The position numbers and the translations under genes were made by a program. DNA of 52,887 nucleotides from positions 1-52,887 of the IMG/VR virus record IMGVR_UViG_3300020596_000029. One strand, written 5' to 3'. Below, in pieces: positions 1 through 52,887 of the stretch; position 1 is the stretch's first letter, and each line of letters begins with the position of its first letter. Source of the DNA: a virus. The notes under the pieces were generated by a model, which was not told the DNA's origin, ran no database searches, and saw only the letters and a program-made list of their open reading frames with translations.

Positions 1-441
1 GTATGCAGAGTGTTTCGCCAAGTGCCGCAACGCTATCAAGCGCGGCAATCCCAACGCTCGCGTTGTTCCGGCACCGTGCGCGCCCTACCATGCCAGCCCC
101 GTGAGTTGGCTAGACTATTGGCGCGACATGCTTGGCTATATCGCGGCGAATGGCGGCTGTGATGGCATTGCCGTGCACGCCTATACTCGGTCGAGCAACC
201 CTGCGGACATTGCCAGCAGTGCCAAGATGGGGCCGCCGCTTGAAAAAACATACAGCGGCTTTCGCACCTATGAGGATGCGCTGGACGCTGTGCCGATGGC
301 ACTCGGCAACTTGCCAGTATACATTACTGAGTTCAATGAGTTGCTTGACGGTGGATGGGATGACCGCAATACAGGCGTGGTGCAGGCGGCATACGAAAAT
401 GTCAACGAGTGGAACAGCCGGTCGGATAGGGAAGACCGCTT
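1..441. repeat. Left copy of imperfect terminal repeat
   Basis: Bases 1-441 align without gaps to 52447-52887 with about 30 substitutions, mostly at third codon positions. Bases 1-63 and 329-441 are identical between copies. The reading frame is kept across the overlap, which supports circular closure of the genome through this locus, with two sequence variants present. Confidence 0.9.
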
Positions 442-6459: not shown

Positions 6460-7011
6460 ATGAGCGAGAAGATAAAGGCTTACGAAGTCGATTTGAACGA
6501 GTTGCGACCTGATCCAAGCAACGCCAATGCAGGGTCAGAACGTGGGCAACACATGATTGACGCCTCGGTGACTGAAACAGGGCTGCATAGAGGCGTTGCT
6601 GTAGACGCTAACGGCTATTTAGTGGCAGGTAACAAAACGCATCAATCGGCGATTGATGCAGGATTTAAGCGCGCCATTATTGTTGAGACTTCTGGCGATA
6701 CCCTAGTTGTCACCAAGAGACTTGACTTTGATTTGATGGATGCCGACCCAAACAACAAGGCAAGACGCGCCGCATATTTTGACAACAGAACTTCTGAAGT
6801 GTCTATGCAATGGAATGTCGAGCAACTGTTTGCCGACATGGGCGCGGGGCTTGACCTGTCGGGCATGTTTCGCGAGGACGAGCTAGACGCGATGCTGGCG
6901 GGGATGCAGGTGCCTGACTTTCAGCCTGTGGATGCAAGCGAACAGCCACGCCTTGACCAAAAGAAACCGATTGTCTGCCCGCATTGCGGCGAGGAATTCA
7001 CTCCAGAATGA
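6460..7011 (+). CDS. ParB/Srx-fold protein with C-terminal zinc knuckle
   Basis: 183 residues. Residues 1-125 form a ParB/sulfiredoxin-like domain (LRPDPSNANAGSERG, then VAGNKTHQSAIDAG, the GNK/R-T/E nucleotide-binding motif). The C-terminus carries CPHCGEEF, half a zinc ribbon. Unlike the second ParB-type protein at 7772 it has no methyltransferase domain. It overlaps mom by four bases (ATGA), so the two are translationally coupled. In phage Mu the zinc-finger protein Com overlaps mom and activates its translation. A similar role here is an inference from the arrangement and the CPHC knuckle. Its 3' part is identical over 75 bases to the methyltransferase gene. Confidence 0.7.
   Translation: MSEKIKAYEVDLNELRPDPSNANAGSERGQHMIDASVTETGLHRGVAVDANGYLVAGNKTHQSAIDAGFKRAIIVETSGDTLVVTKRLDFDLMDADPNNKARRAAYFDNRTSEVSMQWNVEQLFADMGAGLDLSGMFREDELDAMLAGMQVPDFQPVDASEQPRLDQKKPIVCPHCGEEFTPE
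6832..6906 (+). repeat. 75-bp segment identical to 8138-8212
   Basis: Bases 6832-6906 and 8138-8212 are identical and code for the same ADMGAGLDLSGMFREDELDA segment in the two ParB-like proteins. Flanking sequence is much less similar. This suggests recent gene conversion or domain transfer between the two genes. Confidence 0.9.
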
Positions 7012-7694
7012 GCAAGGTAGAACTGCGCGTCGATTGGTGTAACCACGAAGCAGCTAAGTACGCTGTGGAGAAGTGGCACTATAGCTGCAGGATGCCTATG
7101 CCTCCAATACTCAAGATAGGTGCGTGGGAATGCAATCAATTCATTGGTGCGATTTTGTTCGCGCGGGGCAACACGCCGACGCTAGGTCATCGGTACGGAT
7201 TGAAAATGCTGGAAGTTTGCGAGCTGGTTCGCGTTGCCTTGACTAATCATGCTTCGCCTGCGAGTCAGATTGTGTCAGCAGCAATGAAATTACTAGAGCA
7301 TAGTAACCCAGGTTTGCGTCTGATTGTGTCTTTTGCAGACCCCGCGCAAGGTCATAACGGCGCAATCTATCAAGCGATGAATTGGGTATATACAGGCGAA
7401 AGCGAACCATCGTGGCAATGGTTGCACGAGGGGCGTTGGAAGCATAATCGAGAAATGACATCAGGTGCGTTTGGTGGAGCGCGAAAAGTCGCAGACTTAG
7501 CGGTGCTTACCAAGCGTCTGCCGCTTGGTAAGCACCGCTATCTCTACCCGCTTGACCGTGCCATGCGTAAGCAGATTGCACCACTCGCCAAGCCGTACCC
7601 GAAACGTTTACCCCGCGGGCAAAGTGTCGAAGGTGACACGTCCAACGACCAGTTGGAAGAGGCAGGTTCAATCCCTGCTGCCCGCTCTGAATGA
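7008..7694 (+). CDS. mom: Mom-family DNA adenine modification enzyme
   Basis: 228 residues. The core (about 1-165) matches the Mom family: WHYSCRMPMPPILKIG, GAILFARGNTPTLGHRYG, ELVRVALTNH, LRLIVSFADPAQGHNGAIYQ, NWVYTGE and WKHNREM. Mom is a GNAT-fold enzyme that turns adenine into an N6-carbamoylmethyl (glycinamide) form and protects phage DNA from restriction. The conserved tail (GKHRYLYPLDRAMRKQ...PYPKR) is present. The last 25 or so codons coincide exactly with a tRNA-like cloverleaf (7615-7686), so the C-terminal extension looks like read-through of an RNA element rather than protein selected for itself. ATG 7008 overlaps the previous stop. A 19-bp perfect hairpin lies inside the gene (7498-7540). 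Confidence 0.88.
   Translation: MSKVELRVDWCNHEAAKYAVEKWHYSCRMPMPPILKIGAWECNQFIGAILFARGNTPTLGHRYGLKMLEVCELVRVALTNHASPASQIVSAAMKLLEHSNPGLRLIVSFADPAQGHNGAIYQAMNWVYTGESEPSWQWLHEGRWKHNREMTSGAFGGARKVADLAVLTKRLPLGKHRYLYPLDRAMRKQIAPLAKPYPKRLPRGQSVEGDTSNDQLEEAGSIPAARSE
7498..7540 (+). repeat. 19-bp perfect hairpin within mom
   Basis: Left arm 7498-7516 (TAGCGGTGCTTACCAAGCG) is perfectly complementary to right arm 7522-7540, with a five-base TCTGC loop. It sits inside coding sequence for VLTKRLPLGKHRY, just after the catalytic core and about 75 bases before the tRNA-like element. No T-run follows, so it is not a standard terminator. It may be an RNase III or processing site that separates the downstream RNA, or a translation-control structure. 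Confidence 0.85.
7615..7686 (+). tRNA. tRNA-Gly-like cloverleaf at the 3' end of mom
   Basis: 72 bases fold as a full cloverleaf. Acceptor stem: GCGGGCA 7615-7621 with TGCCCGC 7679-7685, 7 of 7 pairs. D arm 7624-7639 (GTGTC/GACAC) with GG in the loop. Anticodon arm 7641-7657 (TCCAA/TTGGA) with loop CGACCAG. T arm 7662-7678 (GCAGG/CCTGC) with loop TTCAATC. G1-C72, C2-G71, G3-C70, discriminator U73 and C35-C36 are the identity elements used by bacterial glycyl-tRNA synthetase. It lacks U33, U8 and A14 and has anticodon ACC, so it should be poor in translation. No CCA is encoded (CTGA follows U73). It overlaps the sense strand of the mom reading frame, so it would have to be processed from the mom transcript. 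A degenerate tRNA gene is the alternative. Confidence 0.7.
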
Positions 7695-7751
7695 CTAATA
7701 AATTGGATATATTGCGCGATGGCTAGAGGCAACACAGATAAGTACACGATA
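7692..7751 (+). repeat. 60-bp direct repeat, copy 1
   Basis: Bases 7692-7751 are identical to 9325-9384. Each copy holds a TGA, an AT-rich stretch and the first 33 bases of the terminase small subunit gene. The pair brackets the ParB-methyltransferase gene, which makes the unit look like an insertion or tandem duplication that could be lost by recombination. Confidence 0.95.
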
Positions 7752-7775
7752 CAAGCATGTCAAGAGGCCAAATGA
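7719..7775 (+). pseudogene. TerS N-terminal remnant (18 codons)
   Basis: The start of the terminase small subunit (MARGNTDKYTI) is duplicated here and continues for only seven unrelated codons to a TGA that overlaps the ATG at 7772 (ATGA). It may act as a leader whose translation is coupled to the methyltransferase gene. The intact copy begins at 9352. Confidence 0.7.
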
Positions 7776-9331
7776 CTGAGAAGATAAGCAAGGCAAATTT
7801 AGCCGACATCCACTTCGATAAGTCGAACGCGAACAAGAGCAGCGAACGTGGGCGCGGCATGATCGAAGCGTCTATGCGTGAGTTTGGCTTTGCCGACGCC
7901 GGAACACTCGACCGAAATAATGTCATAATTGGCGGAAACAAGCGCACGGAGGTAGCGGGTGAAATTGCGCTAAGTGACGAGGCTATCATCATAGACGTGG
8001 ATGGCACGAAGCCTGTGTACATTCGGCGCAATGACCTTGACCTGAGCGACCCAGAGGATGACAGGGCGCGCAAACTTGCCTATGCGCTGAATCGCACAAG
8101 TGAAGTGTCTATGACTTGGGACACCGAGCAACTCCTAGCCGACATGGGCGCGGGGCTTGACCTGTCGGGCATGTTTCGCGAGGACGAGCTAGACGCGATG
8201 CTGGCGGGGATGATGCCTGAGCCTATGACCGACGCGGGCGCGCAGGTGGATAAGGCAGACGAGTTGCGCCAAAAGTGGGGCGTTGAGTTGGGCCAAATGT
8301 GGCAGCTTGGCGAGCATCGGCTGATCTGCGGCGATTGCACAGATGCCGAGGTGGTGGCAAGGGTGATGCAAGGCGAGAAGGCTGTTTTGTGCCACGCCGA
8401 TCCGCCATACGGCATGGGCAAGGAGAATGAGGGCATCGCCAATGACAACCTGTATCGCGAGAAGCTAGACGCCTTCCAGATGGCATGGTGGCACGCGTGC
8501 CGTCCTGCGCTTGAGGACAATGCCAGCGCGTACATTTGGGGCAACGCTGAGGGCCTGTGGCGACTATGGTATTGCAGTGGATTGCGCGACAGCGAACGAT
8601 TGACGTTCCGCAATGAGATTGTCTGGGACAAAGGCGGCGGTGGATTTGGCGTTGGGACTGAGGGGTTACGCTGCTATTTCCCAGAGGAGCATTGTCTGTT
8701 TTTTATGTTGGGCGAGCAGGGATTTAACAACAACGCCGACAACTATTGGGAGGGGTGGGAGCCGATACGCGCCTATTTGGACGACGAACGGCTCAAGATG
8801 GGGTGGAATAATAAATTTGTTGCCGATCTATTCGGTTTCCATCCGAGAATGGCAGATCATTGGTTCAATATTTCGCAATGGTCAATGCCGAAAGACGAAC
8901 AATATAAACGGATGCAACAAGCCGCACGCGGCGACGCCTTCAAGCGGGACTATGACGACCTCAAGCGGGACTATGACGACCTCAAGCGGGACTATGACGA
9001 CCTCAAGCGGGACTTCTACGCCACGCGTGCCTACTTCGACAACGCCCACGACAATATGACCGACGTGTGGCGTTTCAACCGCGTGCATAACGAAGATCGA
9101 TATGGTCACGCCACGCCCAAGCCCGTTGATATGATTGCGCGAGTCATCAAGAGTAGCACGCCAGAGGGGGGCATCGTTTACGTTCCCTTCGCGGGGACGT
9201 TGCCAGAGGTGATCGCCTGCGAGCAACTTGGGCGCAAGTGCCGAGCCGTGGAAATAAGTCCCGCCTACGTCGCCGTTGCCTTGCAACGCTTTGCTGATTC
9301 GACAGAAAAAACGTGTGTGCTAGTTGACTAA
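7772..9331 (+). CDS. ParB-domain DNA methyltransferase
   Basis: 519 residues. Residues 1-150 form a ParB/Srx-like domain with GGNKRTEVAG. A beta-class amino-methyltransferase domain follows, with catalytic DPPYGMG (about residue 210) and a C-terminal SAM-binding region (VPFAGTLPEVIACEQLGR). The usual motif is DPFxGSGTT, so the Asp, the second Gly and the Thr pair are changed, and SAM binding may be weakened. Residues of about 391-415 are four KRDYDDL heptads, as in related phage enzymes. It probably methylates adenine (N6) or cytosine (N4) as anti-restriction beside mom. ATG 7772 has AAGAGG five bases upstream and overlaps the TerS remnant stop; ATG 7757 is possible. The stop codon lies inside the second 60-bp repeat. 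Confidence 0.85.
   Translation: MTEKISKANLADIHFDKSNANKSSERGRGMIEASMREFGFADAGTLDRNNVIIGGNKRTEVAGEIALSDEAIIIDVDGTKPVYIRRNDLDLSDPEDDRARKLAYALNRTSEVSMTWDTEQLLADMGAGLDLSGMFREDELDAMLAGMMPEPMTDAGAQVDKADELRQKWGVELGQMWQLGEHRLICGDCTDAEVVARVMQGEKAVLCHADPPYGMGKENEGIANDNLYREKLDAFQMAWWHACRPALEDNASAYIWGNAEGLWRLWYCSGLRDSERLTFRNEIVWDKGGGGFGVGTEGLRCYFPEEHCLFFMLGEQGFNNNADNYWEGWEPIRAYLDDERLKMGWNNKFVADLFGFHPRMADHWFNISQWSMPKDEQYKRMQQAARGDAFKRDYDDLKRDYDDLKRDYDDLKRDFYATRAYFDNAHDNMTDVWRFNRVHNEDRYGHATPKPVDMIARVIKSSTPEGGIVYVPFAGTLPEVIACEQLGRKCRAVEISPAYVAVALQRFADSTEKTCVLVD
8138..8212 (+). repeat. 75-bp segment identical to 6832-6906
   Basis: Second copy of the shared ParB-domain segment. Identity is total over 75 bases and drops at both ends. 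Confidence 0.9.
8941..9013 (+). repeat. 21-bp tandem coding repeat (KRDYDDL)
   Basis: Three full and one partial copy of a 21-base unit starting CAAGCGGGACTATGACGACC encode heptads inside the methyltransferase. The unit keeps the frame, so copy number can change without disrupting the protein. Heptads of this type occur at the same place in related phage methyltransferases. Confidence 0.9.
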
Positions 9332-9384
9332 TAAATTGGATATATTGCGCGATGGCTAGAGGCAACACAGATAAGTACACGATA
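9325..9384 (+). repeat. 60-bp direct repeat, copy 2
   Basis: Identical to 7692-7751. This copy supplies the methyltransferase stop codon and the true start of the terminase small subunit gene. Confidence 0.95.
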
Positions 9385-19273: not shown

Positions 19274-19657
19274 ATGGCAGAAACCGCAGAAGGCGGAGTC
19301 TATAGAAACGCATCAGGCGTCGGGTATCACGATGCCAACGGCAAGCCCGTTGAGGCGGGCAAGGTCAGCGAGGCAAAAGAGATGCAGCGCAAAGAGTCGC
19401 AAACCAAAATGGCGACCTTGACACCGATTCCTTCGCAGTCCAGCGAGGCATTGGCTGCCGCCATGCGTAGTTTGCTTGTGCCGCAACAGCCAACAAGCGC
19501 GCCTAATACCAACAATGCGCCTGAAACCAACGCGGACACAGGCGACTTGACGCCTGAAACCAACGCGGACACAGGCGACTTGACGCCTGAAACCAACGCG
19601 GACACAGGCGACTTGACGCCTGAAACCGAACGGCGTGCGCGTAATCGACAGGGTTAA
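19274..19657 (+). CDS. Small capsid-region protein with PETNADTGDLT repeats
   Basis: 127 residues. The N-terminus (YRNASGVGYHDANGKPVEAG) is conserved-looking, the C-terminal third is three perfect copies of the 11-residue PETNADTGDLT plus a partial one. The repeats are acidic and should be disordered. It is probably a head accessory protein because of its place after the capsid gene. AGGAATAGATC precedes the ATG. The 85-base gap upstream holds a TATAAT-like box at 19191-19196 without a good -35. Confidence 0.5.
   Translation: MAETAEGGVYRNASGVGYHDANGKPVEAGKVSEAKEMQRKESQTKMATLTPIPSQSSEALAAAMRSLLVPQQPTSAPNTNNAPETNADTGDLTPETNADTGDLTPETNADTGDLTPETERRARNRQG
19521..19628 (+). repeat. 33-bp tandem repeat
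   Basis: Three exact copies of a 33-base unit (starts CCTGAAACCAACGCGGACAC) plus nine bases of a fourth. In frame with the protein, so copies may be gained or lost freely. Confidence 0.95.
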
Positions 19658-38425: not shown

Positions 38426-39105
38426 ACGCGATAGCTACCTTGTTTGAGTTAGACGCACCCGCGCCGAGCCATCCCGCCAAATACACGGACGCCCTACTCG
38501 TCACGATGGCGCAGATGTTGCGCGGCAGCACGCGTATCCTTGACCCCTTTGCAGGGACGGGAAAATGTTTTTTGCTTGAAAGATTCCTCCCTGATTGCGT
38601 GGTTTCTGGCGTTGAGATCGAGGAGGAATGGTGTCTTATCAACCCGCGCACAACGCTCGGCAACGCACTGCACTTGCCGTGGCCTGATGACACGTTCGAC
38701 GCCGTAAATACCAGTCCCGTATATGGCAACCGCATGAGTGACACCTTTGTGGATGGTTCCAAGCGCATGACCTATACCGCGCGGTTAGGGCGCAAACTAC
38801 ATCCTGATAACGCGGGGCAACTGCAATGGGGGCCGAAGTATCGCGAATTTCATACGCTTGCGTGGACTGAAGCGCGGCGCGTGCTGGTCGCGAGCGGCGC
38901 GTTTGTTCTCAATGTGAAAGATTTTATTCGGGATGGGAAACGCGTTGAAGTTACGGATTGGCATATCGAATGTTTAGAATCGCTTGGCTTTCGCCTGCTG
39001 CAACACGAGCAGATTGTCACCCCGTCGCACCGTTACGGGGCCAACAGTGAGGCGCGTATGCCTTACGAAAGCATTATCCTGTTCCGCTTGGAGCCGACGC
39101 AATGA
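38422..39105 (+). CDS. DNA methyltransferase (SPxYGNRM type)
   Basis: 227 residues. SAM-binding motif ILDPFAGTGK (about residue 38), a motif-IV-like TSPVYGNRMSD (about 93) and GRKLHPDNAGQLQWG...FHTLAWTEARRVL, a pattern seen in phage-borne orphan methyltransferases. The base modified (N4-cytosine or N6-adenine) cannot be told. GTG start overlaps the upstream stop. A second enzyme besides the ParB fusion suggests layered anti-restriction. Confidence 0.78.
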   Translation: MNAIATLFELDAPAPSHPAKYTDALLVTMAQMLRGSTRILDPFAGTGKCFLLERFLPDCVVSGVEIEEEWCLINPRTTLGNALHLPWPDDTFDAVNTSPVYGNRMSDTFVDGSKRMTYTARLGRKLHPDNAGQLQWGPKYREFHTLAWTEARRVLVASGAFVLNVKDFIRDGKRVEVTDWHIECLESLGFRLLQHEQIVTPSHRYGANSEARMPYESIILFRLEPTQ

Positions 39106-39275
39106 CAGCCGACACCCTGTACATCATCGGCGTAGGGATGCTTGGCGGCGCAATGGCCGTCGTCGGCATGTGGGGGCGAACATGTCCAGGTTGCAAGGGA
39201 CGTCGCGTAAAACATAACACTGATGGCACGGTTGGCGAGTGTGGCGAGTGTGGCGGGACGGGAGAGGTGGAGTAG
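39102..39275 (+). CDS. Small membrane protein with a zinc-finger-like tail
   Basis: 57 residues, ATGA overlap with the methyltransferase. A membrane helix (YIIGVGMLGGAMAVVGMW) then CPGCKGRR...GECGECGGTGEVE, like half of a DnaJ-type CxxCxGxG zinc finger. Function unknown. Confidence 0.55.
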   Translation: MTADTLYIIGVGMLGGAMAVVGMWGRTCPGCKGRRVKHNTDGTVGECGECGGTGEVE

Positions 39276-39368
39276 GCACACACACAACGCTACGTTCACG
39301 CGTGCGGGGCGGTGCAAAGCCGCCAGCGTCGTATGGTTTTCATTTTTGCATTCAGAAAGGGGCACTCA

Positions 39369-39728
39369 GTGAAAAATAAGTTTGTAGTACGACAGGGCGA
39401 TATTTGCTTGATTCGCACGGACAATGTTCCCGCCAATCTCGTTCGCAAGCCGACCGAAGACAGCGCGGTGACGGTCGGCTTTGGCGAGGTAACGGGCCAC
39501 CACCACTCCATACAGGACGCCGTATGGTATGTCGCACCCGAAACAACGGTTGAGGATTTGCATCAGTTCGCGCTGGGCAACGGCACTGTACCCGTTTTTG
39601 TGGTGCTGGACGAAGCGAGTGTTTTGACGCACCAGGAACACGCGCCGATCTCTTTGGACGCGGGCGTGTGGCGCGTGCTACGTCAACGAGAGTACACACC
39701 TGAGCGTGTTTTGTCCGTGCGCGACTAG
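39369..39728 (+). CDS. Conserved phage protein with HxEHAPI motif
   Basis: 119 residues from GTG 39369 (AAAGGGGC upstream). RQGDICLIRTDNVP, GEVTGHHHSI and LTHQEHAPISLDAGVWRVLRQREYTPE recur in a widespread phage protein of unknown role. The strand pattern and paired His suggest a small cupin-like, metal-binding fold. A longer frame starting at 39312 has no ribosome site. Confidence 0.6.
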   Translation: MKNKFVVRQGDICLIRTDNVPANLVRKPTEDSAVTVGFGEVTGHHHSIQDAVWYVAPETTVEDLHQFALGNGTVPVFVVLDEASVLTHQEHAPISLDAGVWRVLRQREYTPERVLSVRD

Positions 39729-39789: not shown

Positions 39790-40872
39790 ATGCAAAAGAT
39801 CACAAAACTTACCGCAGAGCAGGAGTCGTTGTTGCCCGCGTGGGCAGATAAATGGACAAGCATTGGCCTATCATGCGAGCCGTTGAATTATGACGCCGCT
39901 GTAGATGCGGCGAAACGAGCTTATGCCGCCGCCAGTCTCCCCGCACCCGAACGCTTTGTCGTGTGCGACGGGCCTTTTAGTGGCGCAATTGTCGCCGCAA
40001 TTCTAATGACGGGTATCCCAGCCGGCGTTCGGGCCAGCGTTCGGGCCGGCGTTCGGGCCAGCGTTGGGGCCAGCGTTCGGGCTGGCGTGTTGGACAGCGT
40101 TGGGGCCAACGTGTGGGACAGCGTGTGGGATAGTGTTCGGGACAGCGTGTGGGATAGTGTTCGGGCTGGCGTGTGGGCCAGCGTTCGGGACAGCGTTCGG
40201 GACAGCGTGTGGGATAGTGTTCGGGCTGGCCTTCGGGATAGCGTTTATGGCGCGCATGATGCACATTGGCTCGGCTTTTATGATTTCTTCCTCTCTAATT
40301 GCGGATTGGCTGAACAAGTCGCCCCGTTGCAACCGCTGATTGATCTGGCCTCGCATTGCGGCTGGTGGAGTCCATACGCCAATGTATGCATCCTCCAGCA
40401 TCGCCACTGTGAGTTGCACCGTGACCCTGAGGGTCGATTGCACAATGCCAATGGCCCTGCCGTACTCTATCGCGACGGATGGGGCGTTTGGGCTTGGCAT
40501 GGCGTTCATATTCCCATCGAAAAAGCGTGGATTATCGACGATCCGAATCGCATTGATGTGGCAGCCATTGATGGCGAGCGTAATGCCGAAATTCGCCGCG
40601 TGATGCTGGAACTTTTTGGCCATGATAGATACATTGTTGAGAGCGGCATGAAGCCAGTTCAGACAGACACATATGGCGAATTGTTTCGGCGTGAAATTGC
40701 AGACGACGAGCCTCTGTGTATGGTGCGCGTGGTCAACAGCACGCCCGAATCAGATGGCGAATTGAAAAAATATATGTTACGCGTACCGCCCACCATGCAG
40801 ACGGCACACCAGGCGATTGCATGGAGCTTTGACATGTCTGCGGCCGAATACGCACCAATGGCAGAGTCGTAA
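39790..40872 (+). CDS. DUF6745-like protein with tetrad repeats
   Basis: 360 residues from ATG 39790 (GGAGAAAATT upstream). The C-terminal half ([58 protein letters not shown]) matches DUF6745. Residues of about 80-155 are four-residue repeats ([16 protein letters not shown]), predicted to make a beta-solenoid like pentapeptide repeat proteins. DNA-mimic roles are known for pentapeptide repeats; here that is only analogy. Confidence 0.65.
40024..40245 (+). repeat. 12-bp-based coding minisatellite
   Basis: About 18 units of the type GTTCGGGCCAGC or GTGTGGGATAGC encode V-R/W-A/D-S/G. Pairs form 24-base and longer repeats, so copy number may change readily in frame. No spacers. Confidence 0.9.
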
Positions 40873-41847: not shown

Positions 41848-41888
41848 AAGTTTAGCACGCAGACGATACAGGTGTCAAGGGGATGGAC

Positions 41889-43850
41889 ATGCGAACCTTA
41901 CGCAGTAAGAAATTAAGGGCCGCACTCTATTACAGTCAGGGCGGCAAATGCGCCATATGTGGCGGCGAATTACCAGAGGATTGGCACGCTGATCATATCG
42001 TACCGTGGATGGTCACAAAGCGCACGAATGTACACGAAATGCAAGCGTTATGTCCCAAGTGCAACTTGGGGAAAGGTACGAAAATGCTCAGAAAGCATCA
42101 AGCGGAGATGGAGAGTCACGTCAAGAGTCTTGTCTCAGGTCTTTCTACAAAGAAGAAAATCCTCGTCTATTGCACGCCGGGCGGCGGCAAGAGCGCATTG
42201 CCTGCAATCATGATGAAGTACCTGGGCGAGATGCTACCCGACGAACGAAATTACCGCATTTGCTGGCTTGTGCCACGGGATTCCCTGCGCGATCAGGGCG
42301 AATGGTCATTCGTTGAACTCAAGTCCATCGTTGGGCATCATTGTGAAATTCGCGCGGCTGGCAACGATTTCAATCCTGCGCGCTCGACGATGGGATACGT
42401 TATCAATTACCAGTCTTTGTCTGCTAACCCAGACCTACACCGAGATAACTTCGAACTCGCTAAACAGCGAAATCACCCCTACATTCTCTTCCTTGACGAG
42501 TGCCACCATATCCCAGCACCCAACGAGGATGTAGACGATCCAGAGGAAAAAGCATACTACAAGGCAGTCGCCCCCCTCGTGGAAAAGTGCGACATTCTTG
42601 TAATGGCGACTGGAACGCTAGAGCGTCACGACAAAAAGAAGATCGCTTTCCTTCCCTACACTGGATCGGCTGGCGGAGAATGGGTAGACCTGAAATCAAA
42701 GGACTGGCACGTTATTCGATACACGCGGAAGGATGCGCTAGAGGAAGGCGCAATCGTACCGTTACACATGACCTACGCGGATGGTGCCGCGGTCTGGACT
42801 TCGGCAACGGGCGAAGAAATCTCAGTAGAAAGCATCGCGGAGATGGAGAGGCGTTATCAGGCTCCTGCTCTGCGCACATCTTTGGAAACGGAATATGCTT
42901 ATGCGTTACTCGATAAGTGCATACAGCATTGGCATTCATACAAGTTGAATGTTTATAGCAAGGCTAAGTTACTGATCATAGCTCCTGGCGTGCAGGTAGC
43001 CCGGTCATATTTTAAGCACATTCGCGGTTCGGGGCTTTCCTGCGAGATAGCAGTATCTGCCGATGGCGATGATGCCAAGATAGCCATCAATCGCTTCAAG
43101 GGCAAAGCAAGACCCCATTGTGACATCCTGGTAAGCGTCGCTATCGCGTACGAAGGATTAGATGTAAAGGAAATTACGCACGTTGCACTATTGACTAAAT
43201 ACCGTAGTAAGCCCTGGATTGAGCAAGCGATTAGCCGAGCAAACCGCGCCTCAGAAGGCAAGAGTCACGGCTATATCTACGCGCCAGACGACCCTTCATT
43301 ACGTGCCATTCTTGACGAGATTGAACGCGAACAACAGGGTGTAGTGATTGCTAAGCGGGAAGGGCCACGAGGGACAGTTCCAGATGTGCCGCCGCCGCCA
43401 CGTGTTGAAATTAGTCCCATTGGTAGCGAATTGACCGGGGCTAGAGCGGGCGATCTTGATGGCACGATGAGGACAACTTACGAAGAAGATGCCTTTTTGT
43501 CTGAGCGAATGAAACAGTTTGGCTTGCACGGTAGCACGATCCAACTCAAGCAACTTCTTACTGACATCGGTGTGAGCGAACTGATGCCTGTCAATGGCAA
43601 GGGCAATACAAGCCAGTCCGTATTGCCGCCAGTATCGGTAAGAGAAAAAAAGATTAAAGACAACATATTGGCCTATGTCAAATCTATTGCGAAAGGCGAA
43701 CCAGAAATTATCAAACAGGTACGATTGGCGGCCAAGAATAAATTTGGGCCAATCGACTATCTTGATTATGAAGGATTACGTGAACAGTGGGCATGGCTTC
43801 AAGCAACCTATCCTGGCGGAGTGACCTATGAACCTATTGCTGAACACTAA
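41889..43850 (+). CDS. HNH nuclease-SF2 helicase fusion
   Basis: 653 residues from ATG 41889, six bases after AAGGGG (ATG 41883 is too close). Residues of about 15-65 are an HNH nuclease: CAIC at 21-24, WHADHIVPW, CPKCN at 55-59. A DEAD/DEAH-type helicase follows: Walker A TPGGGKS (about 96-102), DECH (203-206), MATGTL, VAIAYEGLDV and motif VI QAISRANRA (about 446). The C-terminal 170 residues are of unknown fold. The joined nuclease and translocase resemble restriction-type or defence enzymes, yet the place at the head of the replication operon suggests a role in replication, recombination or attack on host DNA. Confidence 0.82.
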   Translation: MRTLRSKKLRAALYYSQGGKCAICGGELPEDWHADHIVPWMVTKRTNVHEMQALCPKCNLGKGTKMLRKHQAEMESHVKSLVSGLSTKKKILVYCTPGGGKSALPAIMMKYLGEMLPDERNYRICWLVPRDSLRDQGEWSFVELKSIVGHHCEIRAAGNDFNPARSTMGYVINYQSLSANPDLHRDNFELAKQRNHPYILFLDECHHIPAPNEDVDDPEEKAYYKAVAPLVEKCDILVMATGTLERHDKKKIAFLPYTGSAGGEWVDLKSKDWHVIRYTRKDALEEGAIVPLHMTYADGAAVWTSATGEEISVESIAEMERRYQAPALRTSLETEYAYALLDKCIQHWHSYKLNVYSKAKLLIIAPGVQVARSYFKHIRGSGLSCEIAVSADGDDAKIAINRFKGKARPHCDILVSVAIAYEGLDVKEITHVALLTKYRSKPWIEQAISRANRASEGKSHGYIYAPDDPSLRAILDEIEREQQGVVIAKREGPRGTVPDVPPPPRVEISPIGSELTGARAGDLDGTMRTTYEEDAFLSERMKQFGLHGSTIQLKQLLTDIGVSELMPVNGKGNTSQSVLPPVSVREKKIKDNILAYVKSIAKGEPEIIKQVRLAAKNKFGPIDYLDYEGLREQWAWLQATYPGGVTYEPIAEH

Positions 43851-44478
43851 ACCGCTAGACGAACTTGGCGACCTCACTGCGCCGATTGGATCACGGAAAT
43901 GGCTGCTTGGTGTCGCGAACGAGATTCGCAAGACGCTCTACGACAAAGAGCAAACAGGGCGACGCCTACAGGACCTAATAGAAGTATTTAAGGAACACGC
44001 TGGCTGGCAGGAGTTTGGCTATTTCACTTGGGAAGAATACTGCACCAAGCGTTTGCAGACTGAGCCGGAGAAGGTTGACACAGAGGCCACGCTACGCGAG
44101 AAGGCGGGCGGAGTACCGGGCAATGTAAATAATCCAACAGGGAATAACCAATACAAGAGAGTGGATGATTCTGATAATTATCAGAATCATCCTGCGGAAG
44201 AAGGCAAGCGACAAAAGTCCTTAGGCGAGTTAGCCGGCACATCGGCTGCGTACACGCTTGCGCGGCTAAAGCGCGATGAACCGTCCCTATACGAGCGAGT
44301 CAAGCGCGGTGAATTGTCTGCCAATGCCGCGGCGATTGAGGCCGGATGGCGCAACCCCAAGACGCGCTACAGCCTTCCAGATGACCCACAGGCGGCGGGG
44401 CGGTACTTGGCGGAGCGCGTGGATCGTGAGTGGTTCGATATGTTGATTGATACCTATTACAAGGCGATTTCGGAATAG
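43828..44478 (+). CDS. Probable DNA-binding replication or regulatory protein
   Basis: 216 residues, 23 bases overlapping the helicase gene. N-terminal helical part (EIRKTLYDKEQTGRRLQDLIEVFKEHAGWQEFGYFTWEEYC), C-terminal ELAGTSAAYTLARLKRDEPSLYERVKRGELSANAAAIEAGWR, a phage helix-rich motif often near replication genes. A 30-bp palindrome lies in its middle (44163-44192). Exact role unknown. Confidence 0.5.
   Translation: MNLLLNTKPLDELGDLTAPIGSRKWLLGVANEIRKTLYDKEQTGRRLQDLIEVFKEHAGWQEFGYFTWEEYCTKRLQTEPEKVDTEATLREKAGGVPGNVNNPTGNNQYKRVDDSDNYQNHPAEEGKRQKSLGELAGTSAAYTLARLKRDEPSLYERVKRGELSANAAAIEAGWRNPKTRYSLPDDPQAAGRYLAERVDREWFDMLIDTYYKAISE
44163..44192. repeat. 30-bp perfect palindrome
   Basis: Arm GGATGATTCTGATAA and its complement, centred on AATT, inside coding sequence (DDSDNYQNHP). 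Palindromes of this length are rare by chance, and coding does not require it. It could be an operator or a replication-associated site, about 550 bases before the iterons. Confidence 0.9.
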
Positions 44479-44480
44479 CT

Positions 44481-45413
44481 ATGAGCGTCAAAATGACAGC
44501 GCGTGTGTGGGCAATCGAAGATGAGGAACTCAAGGACGCGCGCCTACTCACGCTGCTGTCATTAGCGGACTATGCCAACAGCGACGATCTGAGTTGGCCT
44601 TCCGTGCCTACACTCGCCAAGCGCACGCGCATCAGCGAGCGACAGATTCAGCGCAGTATCCATTGGCTAGAGCAAGCCGCCTACATCAAAATCACCGAAA
44701 AGGGCAACGGTCGCGGTCGCGTGACAACTTACAAGCTACTTGTAAAGGGTGACATTAGCGACATAAAGGGCGACACCATGACACCCTTTAGCGAAGAATT
44801 GACACCCGTTGACAGCATAAAGGGTGACATTAGCGACATAAAGGGTGACATTGGCGAAGAAATTCAGTCATACGTGCGAATTGAACCATTAACAACAGAA
44901 CCATTAAGAGCTAAGGGAACTAAAAGCATTGTGGCTGACGCCACACCCGCCCCGCCAGTTGCCCCCGTTGTCACCGTTTTGGAAAAACCAAAAGGCAAGC
45001 GCACAGCCAAACCAAAAGAACCCCCCCACACTTCCGAAATTACCCCCCGTGAGCCGAGCGAGTGGCAAGAGTTTGTCGGTGCATTTTGCTGGTTATGTCA
45101 CGCGCACAAGGAGGTAGGCACTTTGACGAAGGAGCAGAGAGGCGCGTTGTTGGCAGAGGCGAAGGTGGTGCATGACGACGGTTACGACACGGATAATTTG
45201 CGCGAATGGTACAAGTCTATTTGGCTTCAAAGTTGGCAGTGGAAGAAAGACCGAAGCCGCCCCAAGCCAGCCGATGTGCGCTCTAGCATAGCCCAGCTAC
45301 GAGCCGAGACACCAGAGGGCTTTGAAGTTTCACCTGTGTTGAACGGCAACCATTCCACCAACAACGGTATCAATGCGGTACTTGCTTACAGGGAAAGACG
45401 AGGCTACCAATGA
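44481..45413 (+). CDS. Replication initiator (lambda O-like layout)
   Basis: 310 residues. An N-terminal winged helix-turn-helix (about 10-85: LTLLSLADYANSDDLSWPSVPTLAKRTRISERQIQRSIHWLEQAAYIKI) is typical of phage initiators. The middle codes for KGDISDIKGD repeats from DNA iterons and is followed by an AT-rich segment and a Lys/Pro linker. The C-terminal domain (WQEFVGAFCWLCHAHKEVG...) may bind a loader. Initiator with origin iterons inside its gene, then a loader gene, is the lambda O-P arrangement. Four bases overlap with the next gene. Confidence 0.75.
   Translation: MSVKMTARVWAIEDEELKDARLLTLLSLADYANSDDLSWPSVPTLAKRTRISERQIQRSIHWLEQAAYIKITEKGNGRGRVTTYKLLVKGDISDIKGDTMTPFSEELTPVDSIKGDISDIKGDIGEEIQSYVRIEPLTTEPLRAKGTKSIVADATPAPPVAPVVTVLEKPKGKRTAKPKEPPHTSEITPREPSEWQEFVGAFCWLCHAHKEVGTLTKEQRGALLAEAKVVHDDGYDTDNLREWYKSIWLQSWQWKKDRSRPKPADVRSSIAQLRAETPEGFEVSPVLNGNHSTNNGINAVLAYRERRGYQ
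44743..44930. other. Probable replication origin: iterons and AT-rich stretch
   Basis: AAAGGGTGACATTAGCGACA occurs at 44744-44763 and 44819-44838; shorter copies start at 44765 and 44840, and an inverted copy (ATGACACCCTTTA) is at 44778-44790. The sequence after them (about 44870-44930) is AT-rich. The two tandem pairs are 75 bases apart. Iterons followed by an AT-rich unwinding element inside the initiator gene are what lambda-type origins show. Confidence 0.7.
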
Positions 45414-45820
45414 ACGAGATCGAGAAGGTCGGCAAGCAGGGATTGGCTTGGAATGGGCGGCGCATCAAGAGTACCGACGATGAGATTAGTCGGATTCTTG
45501 GCCCAATGTTTGTTCTGTTTTCGCAAGCCAAAATTACGGAAGAAATGGTCGCCGTTTACGTGATGATGCTGCGCGACATTGAGCCGCAAGCGTTGGCAGC
45601 GGCGGTACTCAAGGCAATGAACGCGTGCAAGTTTCTGCCTACTGTTGCCGAGATTCGCGAGCAGTTGGGCGCACGGGTGCCAGGCCCAAGCAGCGACGTT
45701 GATTTGACCAAACTCAAGCCAGTACCTAGCAAAATGTTTCACCTTGACCCAGACGAGGATAGACGGCAGCGTATGGCGCAATTGCGACGCACCGAGAAAT
45801 GGAACCGCTACTATGCGTGA
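45410..45820 (+). CDS. Probable helicase loader
   Basis: 136 residues after the initiator. EISRILGPMFVLFSQAKITEEMVAVYVMMLRDIEPQALAAAVLKAMNACKFLPTVAEIREQLG resembles small phage helicase loaders and lambda P-like helper proteins. It has no ATPase motif. By position it should recruit the host replicative helicase, as no helicase of DnaB type is encoded in the window. Confidence 0.6.
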   Translation: MNEIEKVGKQGLAWNGRRIKSTDDEISRILGPMFVLFSQAKITEEMVAVYVMMLRDIEPQALAAAVLKAMNACKFLPTVAEIREQLGARVPGPSSDVDLTKLKPVPSKMFHLDPDEDRRQRMAQLRRTEKWNRYYA

Positions 45821-52120: not shown

Positions 52121-52887
52121 ATGAAAAGTCTGCTTTACGGCCTGCATGACATAGAAGCCGCCCCCCATGTTCCGCGGGGGGGATGGTGCGTTGACGTGGT
52201 TGCCCTGTCTGAGAATCCGCAACCTACTGACTATACAGCCCTAAGAGCCGATGTGAATTGGATAGTTAGATTGTCGTGGGGCTACGGCTCGACAGGCACA
52301 ATTCCGATGCCAAGTGGCTATCAGAACTTCGCGAACGCCTGCGCCAACTATGTAGCCAAGAGCCAGGGTGCAAACATTTGGATCATCGCTAACGAGCCTA
52401 ACGGCGAATGGGAGCGGCCTCACGGCACTTACATCACGCCTGCAATGTATGCAGAGTGTTTCGCCAAGTGCCGCAACGCTATCAAGCGCGGCAATCCCAA
52501 CGCTCGCGTCATCCCCGCACCGTGCGCGCCCTACCATGCTAGCCCGTCAAACTGGCTAGACTATTGGCGCGACATGCTTGGCTATATCGCGGCGAATGGC
52601 GGCTGTGACGGTATCGCCGTACACGCCTACGTGCGGTCTAGCAACCCTGCGGATATTGACAGCGGTGCCAAGATGGGGCCGCCGCTCGAAAAAACATACA
52701 GCGGCTTTCGCACCTACGAAGACGCGCTGGACGCTGTGCCGATGGCGCTCGGCAACTTGCCAGTATACGTTACGGAGTTCAATGAGTTGCTTGACGGTGG
52801 ATGGGATGACCGCAATACAGGCGTGGTGCAGGCGGCATACGAAAATGTCAACGAGTGGAACAGCCGGTCGGATAGGGAAGACCGCTT
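52121..52887 (+). CDS. Endolysin, N-terminal part (continues at base 1)
   Basis: 255 residues up to the window end. A TIM-barrel glycosidase of clan GH-A type: IWIIANEPNGEW carries the NEP acid/base Glu (near base 52390) and YVTEFNE (near 52771) the nucleophile. No signal peptide, so it needs the holin. The last 441 bases repeat the window start with seven residue differences (for example VI, SN, TV changes). The unique 109 residues here plus the left-end part make the full 712-residue enzyme. Confidence 0.85.
   Translation, partial: MKSLLYGLHDIEAAPHVPRGGWCVDVVALSENPQPTDYTALRADVNWIVRLSWGYGSTGTIPMPSGYQNFANACANYVAKSQGANIWIIANEPNGEWERPHGTYITPAMYAECFAKCRNAIKRGNPNARVIPAPCAPYHASPSNWLDYWRDMLGYIAANGGCDGIAVHAYVRSSNPADIDSGAKMGPPLEKTYSGFRTYEDALDAVPMALGNLPVYVTEFNELLDGGWDDRNTGVVQAAYENVNEWNSRSDREDR
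52447..52887. repeat. Right copy of imperfect terminal repeat
   Basis: Ungapped match to 1-441. The final 113 bases are exact, and about 30 substitutions lie in the part before. It is best explained as two alleles at the assembly join of a circular genome. Confidence 0.9.

What the first reader, a model, noticed from the sequence alone, without database searches (positions are those of the whole stretch)
44743..44930. Lambda-style origin inside the initiator gene
Direct iterons (AAAGGGTGACAT core, five copies including one inverted) followed by AT-rich DNA lie in the middle of a winged-helix initiator gene whose neighbour is a probable loader. The KGDISDIKGD protein repeat is a by-product of the iterons.
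Basis: partly seen in the sequence, partly recalled or inferred. Interest (0 to 1): 0.62.

Follow-up and report, generated by a model that had tools for sequence, protein, structure and literature searches.

The report
Phage replication origin inside initiator gene
A phage replication-starter gene most probably carries its own DNA start site in its middle, and the same layout (repeats that co-vary with the protein's DNA-reading helix, followed by a shared GAACC(A/G)TCA array) recurs across many unrelated phages, which makes origins of these poorly known phages predictable from sequence.

Summary
In detail: three perfect and one 2-mismatch direct copy plus one near-perfect inverted copy of AAAGGGTGACAT (and two weaker inverted ones) lie in codons 88-124 of a 310-aa HTH_36 'O-like' phage initiator, followed by AT-rich DNA (98.5th percentile). 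The reading as a lambda-like in-gene origin is well supported by comparison, not by experiment. In 74 of 81 non-redundant relatives the stretch just after the winged helix carries DNA repeats beyond a synonymous-codon null, usually on both strands; relative L551 uses the same AAAGGGTGACAT in two reading frames (KGDIS, RVTYQ), so the peptide repeat is a by-product. Repeat sequence co-varies with the predicted recognition helix (R58 with TGACA: 14/48 versus 0/70). Lambda O lacks this element and is not hit by the family profile. Not shown: origin activity, binding, what reads GAACCRTCA, and the 'loader' neighbour. In-gene iterons themselves are already known (lambda, P22, L); this is a new variant of that kind.

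The parts
44481..45413 (+). O-like replication initiator gene, 310 aa, N-terminal winged helix-turn-helix (HTH_36), repeat-bearing linker, helical C-terminal part
44526..44687 (+). HTH_36 winged-helix domain (residues 16-69)
   Evidence: AlphaFold2 model pLDDT mostly over 90 for residues 1-90
44637..44675 (+). predicted recognition helix, residues 53-65 (ERQIQRSIHWLEQ); E53, Q57, R58 co-vary with iteron sequence across the family
44744..44755 (+). iteron 1 AAAGGGTGACAT
44765..44776 (+). iteron 2 AAAGGGCGACAC (2 mismatches)
44778..44789 (-). iteron 3, inverted, AAAGGGTGTCAT (1 mismatch)
44799..44810 (-). weak inverted copy AACGGGTGTCAA (3 mismatches)
44819..44830 (+). iteron 4 AAAGGGTGACAT
44840..44851 (+). 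iteron 5 AAAGGGTGACAT
44851..44935 (.). AT-rich stretch downstream of the iterons, candidate DNA unwinding element
   Evidence: 60% AT, 98.5th percentile of the window; family-wide synonymous AT excess at this place
44883..44891 (+). GAACCATTA, variant of the family-wide directional element GAACC(A/G)TCA, copy 1
44898..44906 (+). GAACCATTA, copy 2
44968..44979 (-). outlying inverted iteron-like site AAACGGTGACAA (2 mismatches)
   Evidence: membership in the origin uncertain
45410..45820 (+). 136-aa ORF overlapping the initiator's stop; loader role suggested by position only, not shown
   Evidence: PHROG 9804, unknown function, 4e-12; uninformative
43828..44478 (+). upstream 216-aa ORF of unknown family
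   Evidence: no match

Best explanation
44743 to about 44910 is the replication origin of this tailed phage, embedded in the reading frame of its own initiator. Copies of the protein bind the AAAGGGTGACAT iterons (in both orientations) through the recognition helix of the N-terminal winged helix; the assembled complex strains and opens the AT-rich DNA immediately downstream, which carries a directional GAACC(A/G)T(C)A array; the opened strand receives the host or phage replicative helicase with the help of a loader. Shown here: the sequence anatomy, its DNA-level (not peptide-level) conservation across the family, covariation of iteron with recognition helix, the AT bias and the directional element. 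Inferred: binding, opening, strand choice and helicase loading.
For: O-like HTH_36 initiator in a tailed phage (terminase, portal, tape measure). In 81 clusters below 60% identity, 74 have linker repeats above a synonymous null, against 6/56 in the next 270 nt and 27/209 random windows of other phage ORFs; they start about 15 nt after the winged helix and fade by about 150 nt. Copies on both strands in 67/74, in two or more frame/strand classes in 74/74. L551 uses AAAGGGTGACATATCA as KGDIS and as RVTYQ. Of 7797 residue x word tests the best is R58 with TGACA, followed by other pairs dominated by recognition-helix residues; combined 14/48 versus 0/70, p 9e-7; helix similarity predicts iteron similarity given the rest of the domain (partial r 0.28, permutation p 0.001; rest given helix 0.06); residues 53-65 form the recognition helix in the model. 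Synonymous AT excess of 0.21 per codon (over 8 standard errors) just after the iterons. GAACCRTCA element: 77 copies versus 10.9 synonymous expectation, 4 elsewhere on the same strand, 4 on the opposite strand, spacing 10-12 nt. In named phages, O-like or HTH proteins of this family lie next to DnaC, DnaB or P genes.
Against: No experiment, read coverage or skew signal. In the window itself all direct copies are in one frame, so the window alone cannot separate DNA from peptide selection; its AAGGGTGACA count (6) is reached by the most repetitive of 1000 synonymous shuffles. Its GAACC copies are only two, in the minority GAACCATTA form, spaced 15 nt. The phylogenetic control lacks power: only 2-3 independent pairs on well-supported branches. 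Out of sample, R58 alone does not predict TGACA (3/26; p 0.16), although R58 was present in every TGACA gene.
Confidence: 0.85

Rival explanations
1. The repeats are operator sites: the protein is a repressor or regulator that controls its own operon by binding within its gene, without any origin function.
For: Winged-helix fold is shared with many regulators; autoregulation by initiators is common (established knowledge).
Against: Profile matches are to replication initiators; in named phages the neighbours are replication genes; the downstream synonymous AT bias and directional GAACC array are expected of an origin and not of an operator.
Confidence: 0.07
2. Peptide repeat: KGDIS... is a selected linker or docking peptide and the DNA repeat follows from it.
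For: In the window the direct copies are all in one frame; the repeat gives part of the DNA repetition (synonymous mean 25 of 69).
Against: Inverted copies; same DNA in different frames in L551 and across the family; synonymous null exceeded in 74/81 genes.
Confidence: 0.04
3. Recent tandem duplication (slippage) in an unconstrained linker, with no function.
For: Disordered linker (pLDDT near 45-55 for residues 91-180); the 33-nt unit is 97% identical between two copies.
Against: Placement at the same distance from the winged helix in many unrelated genes, both orientations, and helix covariation are not expected of slippage.
Confidence: 0.03

Closest known systems
Phage lambda ori in gene O
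   Same: Initiator binds repeats in the middle of its own gene, followed by an A+T-rich region that opens (review PMC5043065); iterons 39034-39118 lie inside O 38686-39585 in the annotated record.
   Different: Lambda O is not detected by the family profile and has no AACCRTCA on its coding strand; the lambda iteron is a different, inverted-repeat 19-mer.
Phages P22 and L gene 18
   Same: Distantly related initiators each with different iterons inside their coding regions, as stated in PMC8022706.
   Different: Gammaproteobacterial lambdoid examples; the passage read describes no recognition code or downstream element; not compared in sequence here.
DnaD and its recognition element (PMC10201434)
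   Same: Weak sequence kinship of the winged helix to the DnaD N-terminal domain (E 7e-5, below cut-off); idea of a strand-specific motif in the unwinding region that guides helicase loading.
   Different: DnaD reads pairs of TnnT on ssDNA through its C-terminal tail; the present element is GAACC(A/G)TCA.
RepA_N-type plasmid initiators and DUE repeats of iteron plasmids
   Same: Initiator N-terminal domains 4pql and 4pt7 are among structural matches (Z about 9); iterons plus AT-rich repeats.
   Different: Plasmid arrangement and DUE repeats differ (established knowledge); a shared winged-helix fold is common and shows no membership.

Membership tests
HTH_36-containing phage replication initiators (PHROG 270/1032/391 group) | HTH_36 winged helix at the N-terminus over the curated cut-off | tested here: met
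   PF13730 46 bits, cut-off 25
HTH_36-containing phage replication initiators (PHROG 270/1032/391 group) | similarity to annotated phage replication initiators | tested here: met
   PHROG 270, 1032, 391 at 3e-15 to 4e-14
HTH_36-containing phage replication initiators (PHROG 270/1032/391 group) | DNA repeats in the linker after the winged helix (feature found here) | tested here: met
Lambda O family (Pfam Phage_rep_O) | sequence match to lambda O or its Pfam model | tested here: not met
   no such Pfam hit at E up to 1; family profile does not hit lambda O
Lambda-type in-gene origin (as an architecture) | iterons within the initiator's coding sequence | tested here: met
Lambda-type in-gene origin (as an architecture) | adjacent AT-rich unwinding region | tested here: met
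   (composition only; opening not tested)
Lambda-type in-gene origin (as an architecture) | initiator binds the iterons and replication starts there | not testable with these tools
   needs footprinting and replication assays
Lambda-type in-gene origin (as an architecture) | helicase loader (P-like) encoded next door | tested here: inconclusive
   downstream ORF of unknown family

The most novel reading that the evidence does not exclude
GAACC(A/G)TCA at 10-12 nt steps is a previously undescribed strand-specific origin element common to a large class of phage initiators whose iterons differ: a fixed unwinding or helicase-loading signal read by a conserved partner, while the iteron is the fast-changing lock matched to the recognition helix.
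Probability: 0.55. Interest if true: 0.78.

Novelty: new variant of a known kind. Interest (0 to 1): 0.62.

Why it matters
HTH_36 initiators are found in tailed phages and in genomes of several bacterial phyla, and I know of few mapped origins among them. If right, the origin can be read off the sequence: start just after the winged helix, iterons, then GAACCRTCA. The iteron and its reader sit in one gene, so natural sequence diversity gives a recognition code for this winged helix and predicts which phages or prophages can share an origin. The invariant array raises a testable question on how a helicase is placed on one strand.

Tried and rejected
Close relatives of the window's initiator in IMG/VR: none. 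Alignment A1 was too diverse for a scan. Iteron DNA in named phages by blastn: only chance matches. GC skew as an origin signal: nothing. R58 as sole predictor out of sample: 3/26, p 0.16, not sufficient. Independent-pairs test on the tree: too few supported pairs, so relatedness is handled only by clustering and the partial Mantel test. DnaD's TnnT motif as explanation of the GAACC element: fits the complement of GAACCATCA but not of GAACCGTCA, set aside. Loader identity of 45410-45820: no informative match, poor model. Host assignment: the two genomes with the same iteron and helix (L551, L557) were drawn from the phylum of an Anaerolineae genome, and a 27% terminase match lies in one of them; suggestive of Chloroflexota, not proof. 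Literature searches for the element or for a survey of in-gene origins in this family found none in the open library; most subscription papers are not in it.

Full report
OBSERVATION. The window is a 52,887-base virus record of a tailed phage (terminase, portal, tape measure). ORF 44481-45413 (310 aa) begins with an HTH_36 winged helix and matches PHROG replication initiation and O-like families. Copies of AAAGGGTGACAT lie at 44744, 44765, 44819, 44840 (+) and 44778-44789 (-), with two weaker inverted ones. AT content of 44851-44935 is in the 98.5th percentile of the window. A synonymous shuffle of the same protein reaches a repetition score of 25 on average against 69 observed. A stricter count of AAGGGTGACA only (6 against mean 3.1, maximum 6 in 1000) shows that the peptide repeat accounts for part of it, so the window alone is not conclusive.

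FAMILY TEST. Pattern scans of viral and genome contigs and named phages gave 296 loci with such a gene, 81 clusters below 60% identity. In 74 of 81 the 270 nt after the winged helix have more repeated 7-mers (either strand) than synonymous shuffles (p 0.05 or less), against 6 of 56 for the next 270 nt; coverage by repeats rises from about 0.2-0.3 to 0.7 between 15 and 150 nt after the helix domain. Random windows of 209 other ORFs of the same loci pass in 27 cases with mean score 9.5, so the false-positive rate of this test is nearer 13% than 5%, still far from 91%. Copies occur on both strands in 67 of 74 and in at least two frame/strand classes in all. A second set of 72 clusters from about 1200 genomes, which by eye includes ordinary chromosomal regulators, gave 47 positives.

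DNA, NOT PEPTIDE. L551, from a genome drawn from the phylum of an Anaerolineae genome, shares the window's iteron; its copies read KGDIS in one frame and ERVTYQ in another, with only 28% identity to the window in the rest of the domain and 75% in the compared recognition-helix positions.

RECOGNITION. Among 7797 residue-by-word tests in the first set the strongest is R58 with TGACA (11/22 against 0/52), followed by Q57 with CACCC and E53 with CCCGC/GCACC; other high-ranking residues are 52 and 54, and also residue 43 outside the helix. The AlphaFold2 model puts residues 53-65 in the second helix of the HTH, mean pLDDT over 95. Out of sample every TGACA gene again has R58, but R58 alone is not sufficient; the SERxxQR helices seen there (L539, L551, L557) all have TGACA. 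Combined: 14/48 against 0/70. Helix similarity predicts iteron similarity after removing similarity of the rest of the domain (partial r 0.28, permutation p 0.001), the reverse only weakly (0.06). The tree is poorly resolved and the independent-pair test has no power.

DOWNSTREAM ELEMENT. Choice among synonymous codons is shifted to A+T just after the iterons, by 0.21 per codon at the E-P-S-like motif. This motif turned out to be DNA: GAACC(A/G)TCA repeats at 10-12 nt, in all three frames (EPS, RTI, NHQ and so on), e.g. L264 CCCAGAACCATCATAGAACCATCAATGAACCGTCA. In the first set AACCRTCA has 77 copies 30-300 nt after the winged helix against 10.9 in synonymous shuffles, 4 elsewhere on the same strand, 4 on the opposite strand of whole genes; frames 51/15/11; AACCRTNA occurs in 47 genes, at least twice in 28 against 1.3 expected. 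Density is 95 in 21.8 kb of linkers against 25 in 242.7 kb of other ORFs; close pairs in 28 of 81 genes against 1 of 209. It is as common in GC-rich genes (11 of 17 above 62% GC), spans several C-terminal types, and lies downstream of the iterons (in 86% of genes at least three quarters of iteron hits precede it). The window's copies are two GAACCATTA at 44883 and 44898, a minority form with 15-nt spacing. Lambda O has none on the coding strand and is not hit by the profile.

INTERPRETATION. The layout matches what is established for lambda: initiator-bound iterons in its own gene next to an A+T-rich stretch that opens (PMC5043065). That distantly related lambdoid initiators have different iterons within their genes is published (PMC8022706). 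What appears new is the extent in HTH_36 initiators, the iteron-helix covariation, and the invariant directional array. Its spacing near one helical turn and its strand bias suggest either a protein array on one face or a ssDNA signal for helicase placement, as proposed for DnaD's element in B. subtilis (PMC10201434); which of these is not known. Binding, opening and origin activity are inferred.

NEIGHBOURS. The loader claim is open: the downstream ORF matches only PHROGs of unknown function.

Noticed in passing
window 1-300 and 52447-52746: Imperfect 300-nt direct repeat (91%) at the two ends of the record, perhaps a duplicated or permuted end.
   Followed up: no
window 7692-7751 and 9325-9384: Exact 60-nt direct repeat flanking a ParB-like/DNA methyltransferase gene (7757-9331); a 112-nt 91% repeat at 6795 and 8101 lies nearby. 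Looks like a duplicated or inserted module.
   Followed up: no
window 41883-43850: Fusion of an HNH nuclease domain with a superfamily II helicase (ResIII/Helicase_C) two genes upstream of the initiator.
   Followed up: no
window 39991-40278; 19518-19627; 8933-9014: Other tandem repeats (12-nt period; exact 33-nt triplicate; 21-nt triplicate) elsewhere in the window.
   Followed up: no
L630, L704: O-like/DnaD-like initiators without a detected HTH_36 carry CAACCATCAAG arrays at 11-nt steps, possibly the same element in another initiator class.
   Followed up: partly
L551:630-1844, L557:1447-2883: Genomes drawn from the phylum of an Anaerolineae genome hold initiators with the window's iteron and recognition helix, hinting at a Chloroflexota host for the window phage.
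   Followed up: partly
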